Shown one piece after another: positions 2,825 through 10,808 of a stretch of DNA of 11,757 bases. Below the pieces are notes generated by a model. It had not been told where the DNA came from. It did no database searches and was given only the letters and a program-made list of their open reading frames with translations. Positions within the stretch are counted from its first letter, which is position 1. Each line of letters begins with the position of its first letter. Both the position numbers and the translations under genes were made by a program. Source of the DNA: Anaerolineae bacterium (GTDB lineage: Bacteria; Chloroflexota; Anaerolineae; B4-G1); the NCBI GenBank assembly GCA_016783285.1, contig JADHWW010000067.1, forward strand, positions 1 to 11,757. Direction: 5' to 3'.

Positions 2825-4326
2825 GAGACATTACATCACATCATGCACTGGCCTGGAACGGCCCGCTGATCACGCTCCTGGCGCTGGCGCTGGCCCTCAC
2901 CGCCGGGCTGTTGCTCATCCGGCTCACGCCGCTGGACGGGGTGTTCCTCGTCGTGCTGGTCGTCGGCGGCGTGGCGACGCTGATCGAGCCGCTGGCCGGG
3001 CTGGCCCTGGCGCTCTTCCTCGGCCCCCTGCGGGCCTACCTGAGCGCCGAGGTGCCGCAGGTGCCAGCCCAGATCGGTCAGGTTTTCGTCGCGCTGACGC
3101 TGGTGGTCTGGCTGGCGCGGGGCCTGGCCCGCCGGGAAATCCGCATCCCCCACCCGCTAGGCAACCACGAGGGCAATCACAAGGGATTGCCCCTACTGTT
3201 GCCGCTGCTCATCTTTCTCGGCGCGGCGCTCGTGTCGCTGTGGGACGCGGTCGAACTGCCCGCTTACGGCGTGCCAGAGTTCATCAAGTGGGTGCAGATA
3301 CTGCTCCTGTTCCTGTTCGTCAGCGACCATCTCACACCCCGGCGACTGCCCTGGCTGCTGGGCACGCTGCTCGTGACCGGGCTCTTCCAGGCCGGTGTGG
3401 GTATCTGGCAGTTCGGGCTGCGCGGCGCGGGGCCGGAGCACTTTGGCATCCTCGGCGGCCGCTTCTACCGCGCCTACGGCACCTTTGAGCAGCCCAATCC
3501 GTATGCGGGGTACATTGGGATGACGTTATCGCTGGTAATCGGAGTAGCAATGGAAATACTATGGAGAGGGGGAGACAGGGAGAGGGGGAAAGACTCCCTG
3601 TCTCCTTGTCTCCCTGTCTCCTTGTCTCCCCCTCTCGTCAGCATCGCACTGGGAGCGGCGTTGCTAATGTCCTGGAGCCGGGGGGCGTGGATGGGCTTTG
3701 GGGCGGCAGTGCTGGTGATGGCCATCGCGCTGCCGCGCAAGACGCGCTGGGGGCTGTTGCTGGTGGCCGTGCTCGTCGTCGCGGGACTTGGCCTGCACGC
3801 GACCGGCCTGCTGCCGACATCTGTCACAGCCCGCCTGACCGACTTTAGTCAGGACGTGCAATTTGAGGACGTGCGCGGGGTGGGCATCAGCGACGTCAAC
3901 TATGCCGTCATTGAGCGGTTGGCCCACTGGCAGGCGGCGCTGGAGATGACACGCTACAACCTGTACACCGGCGTCGGCTTTGGCTGCTACGAGCCGGCCT
4001 ACCGCGAGTTCGCGCTCATCAACTGGCCCATTGCGCTGGGGCATGCCCACAACTATTACCTCAACATCGTCGCCGAGACTGGCCTCATCGGCCTGGCCGC
4101 CTACCTGTTCCTGTGGGGTGCAGTCTTTTGGCAGACCTGGAGAGTCACCCGCCGCGCCGAGGGTCTCTGGCGTGGGGTCGCCATCGGGCTGCTAGGCACC
4201 TGGACCCACCTCAGCGTCCATCACTTGCTCGACAACCTGTATGTCAACAACGTTCACCTGTTCGTCGGCGTCCTGCTGGGTTTGCTGGCTTTTGTTATGC
4301 AGAGAACGCGGATAGCAGGACAGTAA
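2821..4326 (+). CDS. O-antigen ligase/polymerase family membrane protein (Wzy_C-like)
   Basis: A polytopic inner-membrane protein of 501 residues with roughly ten or more hydrophobic helices. Family hallmarks are [14 protein letters not shown] near residues 218-231, SWSRGAW at 284-290, and a large extracytoplasmic loop that ends in [17 protein letters not shown] from residue 408. These proteins polymerise or ligate lipid-linked glycans on the outer face of the membrane. I chose GTG 2821, not an upstream ATG at 2755, because it gives the GTGA overlap with the preceding stop and avoids 22 residues read through the previous gene. The protein carries two foreign-looking inserts: a palindrome around residues 117-125 (GNHKGLP) and a repeat-derived segment at 248-272, rich in Arg/Gly and then Ser/Pro/Leu, between two membrane helices. 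Substrate cannot be deduced. Confidence 0.83.
3171..3196 (+). repeat. Small palindrome in the ligase gene
   Basis: GGGCAATC (3171-3178) and GATTGCCC (3185-3192) form a perfect 8-bp stem with loop ACAAGG, followed by CTAC. It is read in frame as EGNHKGLPL. The ending, GCCCCTAC, is the complement of GTAGGGGC and matches the ends of the palindromes at 4955 and 8299. Confidence 0.7.
3564..3636 (+). repeat. Octamer tandem repeat flanked by 14-bp inverted repeat
   Basis: The right half is five tandem 8-mers from 3593 to 3632, alternating TCTCCCTG and TCTCCTTG forms. GAGAGGGGGAGACA (3564-3577) is the exact reverse complement of 3623-3636, so the whole 73-bp block could fold into a long imperfect hairpin. 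It is read in frame by the O-antigen ligase gene and lies between two membrane helices. Confidence 0.85.
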
Positions 4327-4861: not shown

Positions 4862-6085
4862 ATGCGAATAGGCATAGACTACACGTCAGCGGCCCGCCAG
4901 CGTGCCGGCATCGGCCGCTACACTCGCGAACTGGTGGCTGCGCTCCTGGCGTTCGTAGGGCAAGATGGCATCTTGCCCCACAAATACGTCCTCTTCGCCG
5001 CCACCGGCGGGTTGCCTCGCGCCCACTGGCAGCGCGAGATAGACCGTCTGCACGCCATTCGCAATTCGCAATTCGCCATTCGCAACTTTCCTCTCAGCGA
5101 CGAGTGGCTGGCCCGCCTCTGGCACCGCGCCCGCCTGCCCATCCCGGTCGAGGCCATCACCGGCCCCCTCGACATCTTTTACTCCCCCGACTTTGTGCTC
5201 CCGCCCACCCGCCGCCGCACGCGCACCCTGCTCACCGTCCACGACCTCTCGTTCTTGCACTACCCGGAGGCGTTCGTGCCAAAGTTGCGCCGCTATCTGG
5301 AGCGCGTCGTGCCCCGCTCCATCGCCCGCGCCGACCTGGTGCTGGCCGACTCGGAGGCCACCCAGGCCGACATCATCTCACTGCTCGGCGTCTCCCCCGA
5401 CAAAGTGCAGGTGCTCTACAGCGGCGTGCATCCCCGCTTCCGGCCCCAACCCGAACCGGGCGAAGCCGAGCGTATCCGCGCCCGCTACGGCCTGGATCAG
5501 CGGCCCTACGTCTTCAGCGTCGGCACCGTGCAGCCGCGCAAGAACTATGTGCGCCTCATCCACGCCTTCAACCAATTAACCACCCAACTAACCAACCAAC
5601 CAACTAACCACCCAACCAACCAACCAACCAACCAACTAACTAACCACCCACCCACCCAACTCCTCATCGCCGGCGGCCGGGGCTGGCTCTACCAGGACAT
5701 CTTCGCCGAGGCGGAGAAATACAGCGACCGCGTGCGCATCCTGGGATTTGTGGACGAGGCCGACCTGCCGGCGCTGTACCGCCACGCGGCCCTCTTTGCC
5801 TTCCCGTCGCTGTACGAGGGCTTTGGGCTGCCGGTGCTGGAGGCGATGGCCTGCGGCATCCCCGTCGTCTGCTCGGATGTTTCCTCGCTCCCGGAGGTCG
5901 CGGGCGACGCGGCGCTGCTGGTGGACCCGCTCGACACCGGTGCGCTGGCCCAGGCGATGGCCCGCGTACTGGAGGACGCCGATCTGTGCCGGGGGATGAT
6001 CGCCAGAGGGCTTGCTCAAGCAACCCGGTTCACCTGGGAGCAGGCCGCCCGCCAACTCCTGGGTACATTTGAGGGTAATACGTAA
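4862..6085 (+). CDS. Glycosyltransferase family 4 (GT-B fold)
   Basis: A 407-residue cytoplasmic or membrane-associated GT-B enzyme that transfers a sugar from a nucleotide donor with retention. The N-terminal acceptor domain begins with [21 protein letters not shown]. The linker has [11 protein letters not shown] at 125-135, and the donor domain starts with [11 protein letters not shown] at 218-228. The E-x7-E catalytic pair is Glu319 and Glu327 in [15 protein letters not shown], followed by [16 protein letters not shown]. The start has no good ribosome binding site, but MRIGIDYTS is the expected family N-terminus, and the gene begins 30 bases after the GtrA stop. Three repeat-derived inserts are present: VGQDGILPH at 32-40, a heptamer tract at about 65-75, and a Thr/Asn/Gln/Pro-rich tract at 237-266. 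Without them the length would be near 360, the family norm. The stop codon lies inside a fourth repeat. Confidence 0.87.
4955..4981 (+). repeat. 27-bp palindrome forming nine codons of the glycosyltransferase
   Basis: GGGCAAGATG (4958-4967) and CATCTTGCCC (4969-4978) are perfect 10-bp inverted repeats around a single central G. With flanking GTA and CAC the element is 27 bp and coincides with nine whole codons, VGQDGILPH. Its GTAGGGC...GCCCCAC ends resemble those of the repeat at 8299-8351. Confidence 0.8.
5054..5081 (+). repeat. Heptamer tandem repeat GC(C/A)ATTC x4 inside the glycosyltransferase
   Basis: Four head-to-tail 7-mers: GCCATTC, GCAATTC, GCAATTC, GCCATTC, then a decayed GCAACTT. 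They encode [11 protein letters not shown]. This is the same unit as the longer tract at 6141-6196. Confidence 0.85.
5570..5659 (+). repeat. CCAA-type tandem repeat, 90 bp, inside the glycosyltransferase
   Basis: A C/A-rich tract built from AACC, AACT and ACCC tetramers, partly organised in 12-base blocks, with almost no G. It encodes residues 237-266, a Thr-Asn-Gln-Pro-rich stretch ([20 protein letters not shown] and on). It falls where GT4 proteins normally have a short loop between the first strand-helix unit of the donor domain and the LLIAGG strand. Confidence 0.9.
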
Positions 6086-6102
6086 TGCGTAATGCGTAAT
6101 CT
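6075..6102 (+). repeat. Heptamer repeat GTAAT(G/A)C x4 carrying the glycosyltransferase stop codon
   Basis: GTAATAC, GTAATGC, GTAATGC and GTAATCT follow each other without gaps. The TAA at 6083-6085 that ends the glycosyltransferase is part of the second unit. The remaining units fill most of the short gap to the next gene. Confidence 0.85.
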
Positions 6103-6127
6103 GCGGCCCAATTGGGAGGATTGACCC

Positions 6128-6808
6128 ATGCCAGTCGTTCGCCATTCGCCGTTCGCCATTCGCCATTCGCCGTTCGCCATTCGCCATTCGCCATTCGCAA
6201 TCTGCCTCCTGGGCCTCGTCCTCGCCATCGTCGGCTACTTTGCCCCCTGGGTACCTCACGAGACCGCAGCCCTCACCGTAACCGGCTCCGAGTTGGCCGA
6301 GTTCGCCAAGTTTTTCCCCCAGGTGCAGGGCGGTGTGGCGCCCGTGACCCGCGAACTGTTCCTCACACCACTGGTCGCCGCCGCCATCCTGCTCAGCCTC
6401 CTGACAAACAAACTAACCAACAAACCAACCAACAAACTAACCAACAAATCCCCAATCCTCGCCGCCGCCCTGCTGGCCCTCGCCGCCCTGCCCCCCTACC
6501 AATACCTGCTCGACCCGGGATACCGAGGCCAACTGATCCTGGCTGCCATTGGGCTGATCCTCGTCCTGCTGACCCCCCTGGCCCGCCGGCTCCCGCGCCG
6601 CGCCCAGGGTGCCCTGGTCGCACTCCTGGCGCTCGCCGGCGCTCTTCCCGCGCTGTGGCAGTTCGTCCTGCTGCGCCCGCTCGTCGTCGCGCTGTACGAT
6701 ATACCTCTCGGCCTGGGCTGGGGACTGATCGCTTGTGTGGCCGGTTTCGCGCTGCTTCTGGCCTGCGGTGTCCTGGTTGCCGCCAGCCCCGACCGTTCGG
6801 AGAAGTAA
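6128..6808 (+). CDS. Small multi-spanning membrane protein of unknown function
   Basis: A 226-residue hydrophobic protein, last in the polysaccharide operon. I see about five membrane segments: roughly 24-42 (LLGLVLAIVGYFAPW), 76-92, 109-122, 132-150 and a long hydrophobic C-terminal part from 157 to 218. The family is not recognised, and no catalytic motif is visible. GGGAGGA at 6114-6120 sits 7 bases before ATG 6128, which makes this start convincing. Consequently residues 3-24 come almost entirely from a DNA heptamer repeat and show the seven-residue period RHSPFAI three times. A second repeat gives TNKLTNKPTNKLTNKS at 93-108 in a loop between membrane helices. It may be a polysaccharide export or membrane accessory protein, judged by position only. 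Confidence 0.65.
   Translation: MPVVRHSPFAIRHSPFAIRHSPFAICLLGLVLAIVGYFAPWVPHETAALTVTGSELAEFAKFFPQVQGGVAPVTRELFLTPLVAAAILLSLLTNKLTNKPTNKLTNKSPILAAALLALAALPPYQYLLDPGYRGQLILAAIGLILVLLTPLARRLPRRAQGALVALLALAGALPALWQFVLLRPLVVALYDIPLGLGWGLIACVAGFALLLACGVLVAASPDRSEK
6141..6196 (+). repeat. Heptamer tandem repeat GCC(A/G)TTC x8 at the start of a gene
   Basis: Eight perfect-register 7-mers (A, G, A, A, G, A, A, A at the variable fourth base), preceded by GTCGTTC and followed by GCAATCT. Because 7 is not a multiple of 3, all three reading phases of the unit are used, giving the protein period RHSPFAI. The tract begins 13 bases after the start of the ATG. Confidence 0.92.
6404..6451 (+). repeat. 12-base tandem repeat x4 in the membrane protein gene
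   Basis: Four 12-mers in codon register, each reading ACA/ACC AAC AAA then CTA, CCA, CTA or TCC. They encode TNKL TNKP TNKL TNKS. The sequence is close in style to the CCAA-type tract at 5570-5659. Confidence 0.9.
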
Positions 6809-6864: not shown

Positions 6865-6883
6865 CCCGGTGGGGCATAAAAGC

Positions 6884-6914
6884 ACCGGGGCGGCACAAAG
6901 CCGCCCCGGTTTTT
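6884..6914 (+). terminator. Rho-independent terminator, probably bidirectional
   Basis: CCGGGGCGGC (6885-6894) and GCCGCCCCGG (6900-6909) form a 10-bp GC-only stem with loop ACAAA, followed by TTTTT (6910-6914). It ends the plus-strand polysaccharide operon. On the minus strand the same stem is followed by TGCTTTT, so it could also stop the converging 444-residue gene. Confidence 0.88.
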
Positions 6915-9480: not shown

Positions 9481-9511
9481 TTTGTTCATTGTTCATTGTC
9501 TCATTGTCCAT
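9481..9511. repeat. Degenerate heptamer repeat (ATTGTTC-like) at the convergent gene ends
   Basis: TTTGTTC, ATTGTTC, ATTGTCTC and ATTGTCC follow each other, 7 bases each except one of 8. The tract lies between the split ORF and the transporter gene, and supplies the transporter's TGA stop (minus strand, 9503-9501). Confidence 0.75.
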
Positions 9512-10808
9512 TTTCCCCCCCCCGGGGTTCGCACAATCGCATGCTGAATACAAACGCCAGCCCCTCGCAGGCCAGCGCCAGCGCGAACAGCCCCTCGAAC
9601 CCAAACCGGTCCACCACCAATCCTCCCACGCCCGTCGCCAGGAGCGTGAGGCCCAGCACTGTGTTGGCAAAGCCCAGGTAGACCGGGCGCTCGACCGGTG
9701 GGGCGATCTCTAGCAGCAGATTGCTGCCACTGATTATGCCCGCCGGCCGGAGCGCACCCTCGAGCGCGAAAACCGGTAGTATGAGATACGGCAGCCACAG
9801 TCCGTCCAGCCCGGTGCCGGGAACGAGCACACTCAGCCCCAACACGAGTACCATCACACCCGCCTTGCCCGCCGCGATCAGGCGTAGTACCAGCCGGTTG
9901 CCGTGACGGTCGCTCAACCGGCCCCACAGCAGGTTGGTCGTCAGCGCCGTCGCCTGCGTTGTGATCAGGTAGACGCCGATCATCTCCACGCCCGCGCCCA
10001 ACACCTCTTTGGCGAAAATAACGTAAAAGGGAAGCGCAATCTCCCCGAACATCAGCGCCGCACGGGCGACGAGATAACGGCGGAACGAGACATCCCGGTT
10101 GACCAGGCTCCAGCCCCGCCGCACTTGCTCCCCCAGCCGGACGCGCTCCTCCACCATCTCCCCCTCCGGCTCTGGGATCAGCGCAAACGCGGTCAGCGCC
10201 AGAGCGATCACACCGGTGGCCACGGTCAACAGGAGAGCATACCCGCACGGAAACGGGAGATCCAACCCCCCGTTCAACGCCTGGTTCACCACCCACCCCG
10301 CTGCGATGGCCAGCAACCCGCCGAGGAGTTGTCGCCAGGCAAATAAACTCCCCCGCCGCGTCGCCGGGATCGTCTTGGCGATCACGTCAAAGAAAGGGAT
10401 GCCTGCCAGTCCGGCGGCCAGTTGCGCCAGCGGGTAGAGGGTGAAGAAAGCAACCAGCAACGCGCCCCGGTCGCTTACGAACCAGGTCAGAGCGGTCAGC
10501 GTGGCCCAGCAGACGAGGCGCACCGCACCTGTCACGATGTAAAAAGGCAACTTGTGCGGGCGGCGTTGCAGATAGCCAGAGACGAACATCTGGGGCAGGA
10601 ACCAGCCCGCGCTGGCCAAAGGCGACACCAGTCCGACCAGGAATCCCGACGTGGTGAGTTCACTGACGAACCAGGTGAGTACCAGCGCCGGGTCAACCAG
10701 GGCCAGGCTGAACCGAAAGAGAGCGCCGTTCAGCACAGTCAGAATGAAACTGCGGCGCACGTGCTCGTGGCTTATTGGGGATGTTTTTGTCGAACCTGTA
10801 TGGGCCAT
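9501..10808 (-). CDS. Major facilitator superfamily (MFS) transporter
   Basis: A 435-residue inner-membrane transporter with about twelve hydrophobic helices in two halves, separated by a charged cytoplasmic loop around residues 212-246 (IPEPEGEMVEERVRLGEQVR). The MFS loop motif occurs in the second half as GRLSDRHGNR at 296-305, the expected place between helices 8 and 9. In the first half the equivalent loop is degenerate (SGYLQRRPHK at 77-86). Substrate is not predictable; drug or metabolite efflux is a generic possibility. ATG 10808 has no clear ribosome binding site, but a plausible promoter lies 20 bases upstream, giving a short leader. The C-terminus runs into a G9 homopolymer on the coding strand (9523-9515) and a heptamer repeat, so the last residues (RGGENGQ) look repeat-derived. 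Confidence 0.85.
   Translation of the reverse strand: MAHTGSTKTSPISHEHVRRSFILTVLNGALFRFSLALVDPALVLTWFVSELTTSGFLVGLVSPLASAGWFLPQMFVSGYLQRRPHKLPFYIVTGAVRLVCWATLTALTWFVSDRGALLVAFFTLYPLAQLAAGLAGIPFFDVIAKTIPATRRGSLFAWRQLLGGLLAIAAGWVVNQALNGGLDLPFPCGYALLLTVATGVIALALTAFALIPEPEGEMVEERVRLGEQVRRGWSLVNRDVSFRRYLVARAALMFGEIALPFYVIFAKEVLGAGVEMIGVYLITTQATALTTNLLWGRLSDRHGNRLVLRLIAAGKAGVMVLVLGLSVLVPGTGLDGLWLPYLILPVFALEGALRPAGIISGSNLLLEIAPPVERPVYLGFANTVLGLTLLATGVGGLVVDRFGFEGLFALALACEGLAFVFSMRLCEPRGGENGQ

What the first reader, a model, noticed from the sequence alone, without database searches (positions are those of the whole stretch)
6128..6203. A protein N-terminus made from a DNA heptamer array
With a good ribosome binding site at 6114-6120, the ATG at 6128 starts a protein whose residues 3-24 are the translation of GCC(A/G)TTC x8, giving RHSPFAI three times and then the first membrane helix. 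Because 7 and 3 share no factor, any gain or loss of one unit shifts the frame: the gene could be switched on and off by slippage (phase variation) in an operon for surface glycans.
Basis: partly seen in the sequence, partly recalled or inferred. Interest (0 to 1): 0.7.

Follow-up and report, generated by a model that had tools for sequence, protein, structure and literature searches.

The report
Repeat-coded tail of a membrane protein
A membrane protein of a probable Chloroflexota bacterium begins with a floppy tail written by a 7-base DNA repeat; a close relative writes the same tail with a different 7-base repeat and keeps the reading frame, so this looks more like tolerated repeat DNA inside a gene than an on/off switch.

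Summary
In detail: nine units, eight TTCGCC[A/G] and one TTCGCAA (6138-6200), follow the ATG at 6128 and encode RHSPFAI three times (residues 5-25), up to the first predicted helix. Start and ribosome site are conserved in the closest relative with DNA (L036/L044, Chloroflexi MAG), but its tail is written by another heptamer, TTCGGGA. Across 121 homologues the pre-helix tails show 7-residue periodicity (lag-7 identity 0.32; other lags 0.02-0.075), as heptamer-coded tails would. Close homologues differ by exactly 7 residues (three units), so array length changes. No clear out-of-frame allele was seen: in samples of three related genomes, 9 arrays had coding sequence in one frame on both sides (SelB and UvrD among them); the 5 with different frames lay at gene junctions on inspection. 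Best reading: a tolerated, frame-filtered tandem array in a disordered N-terminus. On/off phase variation is unsupported but not excluded: no reads were available, and protein comparisons favour in-frame alleles. The ribosome site is also the 3' end (LRPNWED-stop) of an otherwise lost upstream gene. New variant of a known kind; closest mechanistic precedent: the N-terminal heptads of E. coli K1 NeuO.

The parts
6128..6808 (+). Gene for a 226-aa membrane protein; family found in Chloroflexota, no Pfam domain
   Evidence: ORF; no Pfam match at E <= 0.01; 282 homologues; helical model, mean pLDDT 79.9
6138..6200 (+). Heptamer array, eight TTCGCC[A/G] units plus TTCGCAA; with the bases just before and after it encodes RHSPFAI x3 (residues 5-25)
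6101..6124 (+). CTGCGGCCCAATTGGGAGGATTGA = LRPNWED-stop: relic 3' end of a lost upstream gene; contains the ribosome site GGGAGGA (6114-6120)
   Evidence: relatives L045, L046, L049, L055, L057 have a reading frame ending ELRPDWED, ERRPDWED, ELKPDWEG, ELKPDWEGR, ELRPDMEG just before this gene; same relic in L044
6075..6100 (+). Second heptamer array (GTAATGC); supplies the stop codon of the glycosyltransferase. The relative is 8 bases shorter here (one unit plus one base) and its glycosyltransferase ends differently
6404..6448 (+). 12-base/4-base repeat in the same gene, encodes TNKLTNKPTNKLTNKS between two predicted helices
   Evidence: homologues vary here in 4-, 8- or 16-residue steps
5053..5085 (+). 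Heptamer array (TTCGCAA/TTCGCCA) in the glycosyltransferase gene; the relative has GGAGATT units nearby instead
5569..5660 (+). Tetramer array in the glycosyltransferase gene; the aligned relative lacks 66 bases here, frame kept

Best explanation
The array belongs to a class of short tandem arrays, often heptamers, scattered in genomes of this Chloroflexota group. It sits between the start codon and the first membrane helix, a place where the protein tolerates different tails. Because 7 and 3 share no factor, an array free of stops reads as one cyclic heptapeptide in all three frames, so it can be captured as coding sequence in any phase, provided that the total length keeps the downstream frame. 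Arrays change length by slippage or unequal recombination and can be replaced by another heptamer family; selection removes lengths that break the frame, so surviving alleles step by 7 residues. The tail has no sequence-specific role and at most a generic one (a flexible, mildly basic start). Shown: the array, its coding, the conserved start site, a different heptamer at the same site in the relative, 7-residue steps, frame kept in arrays inside genes of relatives. Inferred: the mutational process, purifying selection on frame, the lack of a specific role, and that the window's own genome is rich in such arrays (no genome held).
For: Same start and ribosome site but a different heptamer in L044. 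Tail periodicity in 121 proteins: lag 7 232 of 725 pairs (0.320), other lags 2-12 0.020-0.075; in 34 thinned tails 56 of 268 (0.209), reached by 0 of 2000 shuffles. 36 of 121 tails have three or more lag-7 identities, 2.3 expected from shuffles. Tails can be missing: length 0 as cut in 10 of 121 (some may be partial proteins). Residues 1-10 and 11-20 have mean pLDDT 58 and 48, first helix 22-37. Exact 7-residue tail steps: window/P0001 (216 of 219 identical), window/P0002 (189 of 219), P0002/P0004 (202 of 212), P0003/P0006 (186 of 208). Genome samples: 29 real lag-7 arrays (17 G001, 4 G002, 8 G005), 2 at contig edges set aside; of 27, 14 have coding flanks on one strand, 9 in the same frame, each within one stop-free span of 295-1517 codons, and 5 in different frames, all at gene junctions. 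SelB and UvrD are among the 9.
Against: Protein comparisons are biased towards in-frame alleles: gene callers drop or re-start frame-shifted ones. P0027 matches P0028 at 195 of 198 but lacks its first 13 residues and starts at an internal Met: an out-of-frame allele or a start-call choice. The 13 arrays with coding on one side (8) or neither (5) were not resolved gene by gene, and the judgement 'junction' for the 5 was made by eye. Two of the 9 lie 33 bases apart in one stop-free span. Heptamers do not dominate everywhere: in G005 lag 12 (11) and lag 8 (10) exceed lag 7 (8). Exact triplets of TTCGGGA and TTCGCCA are absent from G001, so its tail's unit is not a frequent family there. The glycosyltransferase-end array differs by 8 bases, not a multiple of 3, as expected where the frame matters little. 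The frequency of heptad tails in this one family could hint at a function.
Confidence: 0.72

Rival explanations
1. Phase variation as in NeuO: gain or loss of single heptamers switches the membrane protein on and off and tunes tail length.
For: Same anatomy as neuO, where heptamers begin two bases after the start codon and multiples of three units read through (window). Tail length differs between close homologues. One shifted frame stops early, at 6279. P0027 lacks the tail of P0028.
Against: The four single-gap tail differences measured are all 7 residues. 9 arrays inside genes of relatives are in frame, two in SelB and UvrD, which would be unlikely switch genes (inference). The other shifted frame stays open to 6877. 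The array is imperfect, 5 mismatches in 56 at lag 7, which should slow slippage (general knowledge).
Confidence: 0.14
2. The tail is selected: a basic, flexible heptad tail helps insertion, dosage or binding, and heptamer arrays are kept as a cheap way to make it.
For: Heptad-periodic tails are common in the family. Heptamer arrays are enriched at this gene's 5' end: 5 of 47 loci have one within -105..+21 of the helix start, each with a different unit, against 6 arrays in the other 150,946 bases (Fisher p 2.4e-5).
Against: Heptapeptides differ (RHSPFAI, RDSGFAI, ADCRLQI, GDWRLEI), 10 of 121 have no tail as cut, at least one of the 5 arrays (L064) lies upstream of the coding start, and the enrichment may hold for gene junctions in general, which was not tested.
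Confidence: 0.1
3. Translation really starts downstream and the array is untranslated leader.
For: Arrays also occur just upstream of start codons (second array 6075-6100; L197).
Against: The next in-frame start codon is TTG at 6293, residue 56, beyond the first helix and the conserved PW..H...ALTVTG block; the ribosome site points to 6128 and is conserved in L044.
Confidence: 0.03

Closest known systems
NeuO polysialic acid O-acetyltransferase of E. coli K1 (AAGACTC heptamers, poly-psi domain; passages of PMC3046976 seen)
   Same: Heptanucleotide array inside the 5' coding region close after the start codon; three units give one heptapeptide; length varies; heptads are not a prerequisite for activity there, and some homologues lack the tail here.
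   Different: NeuO switches by gain or loss of single units, other copy numbers giving truncated protein; here only steps of three units were seen, the array is imperfect, the protein is a membrane protein of unknown function, and a relative uses a different heptamer.
TAACTGA heptamer repeats of marine Beggiatoaceae, some Cyanobacteria and Bacteroidetes (abstract and passages of PMC4679880 seen)
   Same: Short heptamer arrays scattered in a genome, often close to start codons; no mechanism of spread evident.
   Different: One unit, which gives stops in forward orientation, mostly upstream of start codons in the main genome; here several units, some stop-free and inside genes.
Cyanobacterial short tandemly repeated repetitive (STRR) sequences (recalled; only a search listing seen)
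   Same: Several heptamer families scattered in one genome (recalled).
   Different: Recalled as mainly intergenic; here read as protein.
Rickettsia palindromic elements inside genes (recalled; only a search listing seen)
   Same: Repeat DNA tolerated in frame at permissive places of proteins (recalled).
   Different: Longer palindromic elements, not tandem heptamers (recalled).

Membership tests
NeuO-type heptamer phase variation | Heptamer array within the first codons of the coding region | tested here: met
NeuO-type heptamer phase variation | Assembled allele has a unit number that keeps the main frame | tested here: met
   nine units, open frame 6128-6808
NeuO-type heptamer phase variation | Alleles with unit numbers not divisible by three exist (off state) | tested here: inconclusive
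   none recognised among the 120 listed homologues (of 282); P0027 ambiguous; protein data biased against them
NeuO-type heptamer phase variation | Frame shift truncates the protein | tested here: inconclusive
   one shifted frame stops at 6279, the other at 6877
NeuO-type heptamer phase variation | Reversible switching in a population | not testable with these tools
   no reads
Genome-wide short tandem heptamer arrays (STRR-like) | Heptamer families that recur within one genome | tested here: met
   in a relative, not the window's genome: 15 classified G001 arrays fall in 6 clusters; with G002, G005 and the window 28 arrays make 11 clusters against a mean of 21.7 (minimum 15) in 300 random sets
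Genome-wide short tandem heptamer arrays (STRR-like) | Mainly intergenic (recalled) | tested here: inconclusive
   of 27 arrays in relatives 9 lie inside genes in frame, 5 at gene junctions, 13 were not resolved
Genome-wide short tandem heptamer arrays (STRR-like) | Many arrays in the window's own genome | not testable with these tools
   no whole genome held; the window itself has several tandem arrays

The most novel reading that the evidence does not exclude
These Chloroflexota carry an active process that writes and rewrites heptamer arrays at permissive coding sites, replacing one heptamer family by another at the same codon positions, and so creates new frame-independent heptapeptide tails and loops across the proteome: a steady source of new protein sequence.
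Probability: 0.2. Interest if true: 0.65.

Novelty: new variant of a known kind. Interest (0 to 1): 0.42.

Why it matters
In the papers seen here, heptamer arrays in bacteria are discussed as switches (NeuO) or as repeats upstream of genes (TAACTGA). Here one orthologous N-terminus is written by different heptamers in two related genomes with frame kept, and the protein family suggests the same for more lineages. That gives a natural series for asking how such arrays arise, spread and become protein, and it warns against calling phase variation from a coding heptamer array alone.

Tried and rejected
Tried without gain: no whole genome for the window; viral contigs gave no relative of the protein (27 stretches matched a pattern, none confirmed); the plasmid search gave 41 records, none covering 80% of the query, the listed rows being short matches mostly under glycosyltransferase genes; no PDB fold match at E <= 0.001, best 0.049 (claudin), treated as no result; exact triplets are rare in the 48 genomes of the order (TTCGCCA 9 of 48, GCAGATT 4 of 48, TTCGGGA 2 of 48; none of the three in G001); the start region folds no better than shuffles (z 1.10, 176 of 200 shuffles fold at least as well), so no leader structure was found. 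The greedy-ORF classification of arrays was dropped because ORFs covered 94% of the sample; a codon-model test replaced it. Lag 21 fits the array best (2 mismatches in 42; lag 7 5 in 56, lag 14 4 in 49), which agrees with a three-unit duplication but is weak evidence.

Considered and rejected: a downstream start (next in-frame start is residue 56).

Literature: searches; in that library no paper holds both 'heptanucleotide' and 'chloroflex'. Of papers, only the passages shown were seen; the rest are search listings.

Full report
What is there. The ATG at 6128 follows GGGAGGA at 6114-6120. Eight TTCGCC[A/G] units and one TTCGCAA unit fill 6138-6200; TTCGCCR occurs 18 times in the window against 4.8 expected, 0 of 200 shuffles. 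They encode RHSPFAI at residues 5-11, 12-18 and 19-25. All three forward frames of the array give a cyclic form of nearly the same heptapeptide without a stop.

The protein. It has no Pfam match at E <= 0.01 but 282 homologues at E <= 0.001, of which the best 120 were listed and used; the organism names given there are Chloroflexi/Chloroflexota or Anaerolineae, apart from one sediment metagenome. Upstream in the window lie an NAD-dependent epimerase, an O-antigen-ligase-like protein, a GtrA-like protein and a group-1 glycosyltransferase. The model (27 rows, mean pLDDT 79.9) gives residues 1-10 and 11-20 mean pLDDT 58 and 48 and the first helix at 22-37, so the array reaches about four residues into the helix. 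No solved fold matches at E <= 0.001.

Relatives. One scan of genome contigs gave 9 loci; searches found the family in 32 of 48 genomes of the order (E <= 0.001) and 46 of 396 genomes drawn from the class (E <= 1e-30). L036/L044, a Chloroflexi MAG, shares the gene order; its five matching blocks are 74-91% identical. The ribosome site and ATG are the same, but the coding array is TTCGGGG TTCGGGA TTCGGGA TTCGCAA. A glycosyltransferase loop shows a similar exchange, TTCGCAA units in the window and GGAGATT units in L036, and a tetramer array in that gene is 66 bases longer in the window; the frame is kept (full-length tblastn match of a relative's glycosyltransferase to L036). In L049 the tail appears to be written by AAATCTC units, if translation starts at a GTG before them.

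Family-wide tails. Tails before the first helix were cut from 121 proteins (120 hits plus the window); 97 have ten or more residues. Identity at lag 7 is 232 of 725 pairs (0.320), at other lags from 2 to 12 0.020-0.075. After thinning to 34 tails it is 56 of 268 (0.209); 0 of 2000 shuffles reach it (maximum 0.123). Tail lengths peak at 11 (34 proteins), 14 (27) and 18 (9), with 4 at 25 and 10 at 0. 36 of 121 have three or more lag-7 identities against 2.3 expected. That these tails come from heptamer DNA is seen directly in the window and L044 and is inferred for proteins whose DNA was not seen.

Length steps. Of 16 pairs compared: window/P0001, window/P0002, P0002/P0004 and P0003/P0006 differ by one 7-residue block in the tail; P0010/P0014 and P0014/P0017 (8 residues) and P0014/P0015 and P0010/P0017 (16) differ in the loop, 99-100% identical elsewhere; P0002/P0003 and P0004/P0005 differ by 4 in the loop; P0028/P0030, P0044/P0059 and P0044/P0050 have no gap; window/P0008 has five gaps, one of 5 residues in the tail, and was not interpreted; P0014/P0063 differ by 26 residues outside the repeats; P0027 lacks the first 13 residues of P0028. 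So arrays vary in length; the steps that could be read keep frame, with the stated bias against seeing others.

Genome samples. In 690,990 bases of G001 there are 17 lag-7 arrays, 9 at lag 8, 3 at lag 12, 1 at lag 10 and none at the other lags from 4 to 13; all 17 were already in the first 40 contigs, and the last 20 added none. G002: 6 at lag 7, of which 2 are fully masked contigs, so 4. G005: 8 at lag 7, 10 at lag 8, 11 at lag 12. One Markov control of the first 497 kb of G001 gave none at any lag. Besides the 2 masked contigs, 2 G001 arrays at contig edges were set aside. Of the other 27, 14 have coding sequence on both sides on one strand: 9 in the same frame, each within one stop-free span of 295-1517 codons, and 5 in different frames, each at a junction of two genes on inspection. 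The other 13 have coding on one side (8) or neither (5) by this test and were not resolved, though several of them also lie within long stop-free spans. Same-frame cases include SelB and UvrD; at junctions, a CcmB gene and a 688-aa protein carry arrays at or near the N-terminus. Units recur: 28 arrays (27 plus the window's) make 11 clusters against a random mean of 21.7.

The start region. In 47 loci of the family, 5 have a heptamer array within -105..+21 of the helix start, each with a different unit, against 6 elsewhere in 150,946 bases (Fisher p 2.4e-5). Whether gene junctions in general are as rich was not tested, and at least one of the five (L064) lies before the coding start.

The ribosome site is a relic. 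6101-6124 reads LRPNWED-stop. In L045, L046, L049, L055 and L057 a reading frame ending in ELRPDWED or a close variant stands directly before this gene; in L045 it holds a small gene that appears to begin MYPIYSTNGEW. tblastn of five of the frames (L045, L049, L053, L055, L057) showed no copy of that gene in the window or L036: the strong matches were to the glycosyltransferase region, the others weak. Window and L044 keep only its end, next to the GTAATGC array that supplies the glycosyltransferase stop in the window. A deletion with one end in or near that array is the simplest reading (inference).

How it works. Best supported: a tolerated, stop-free tandem array captured as a disordered N-terminal tail and filtered for frame. 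Confidence in the best explanation was lowered slightly (0.74 to 0.72) and the phase-variation rival raised (0.13 to 0.14) on checking, because 13 of 27 arrays are unresolved and the tail unit is not a frequent family in G001. Novelty: new variant of a known kind.

Noticed in passing
window 6101-6124: Fossil 3' end (LRPNWED-stop) of a gene that stands before this gene in several relatives; it now holds the ribosome site.
   Followed up: yes
window 3563-3636: 8- and 16-base repeats inside the O-antigen-ligase-like gene.
   Followed up: no
window 9482-9512: Another heptamer array (TTGTTCA type).
   Followed up: no
window 6884-6910: Strong terminator-like hairpin after the gene, found on both strands.
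   Followed up: no
L109 3336-5402 (-): A 688-aa frame of G001 begins MKSRLTFDVSRFT, a heptamer-coded N-terminus just before a hydrophobic stretch: a second case of the same architecture.
   Followed up: partly
L112 2074-5367 (+): UvrD-type helicase of G001 with an intein-splicing domain match (residues 559-635) and a heptamer array near residue 826, inside the UvrD_C match.
   Followed up: partly
L001-L034: The exact string TTCGCCATTCGCCATTCGC occurs in 34 stretches of viral contigs.
   Followed up: no
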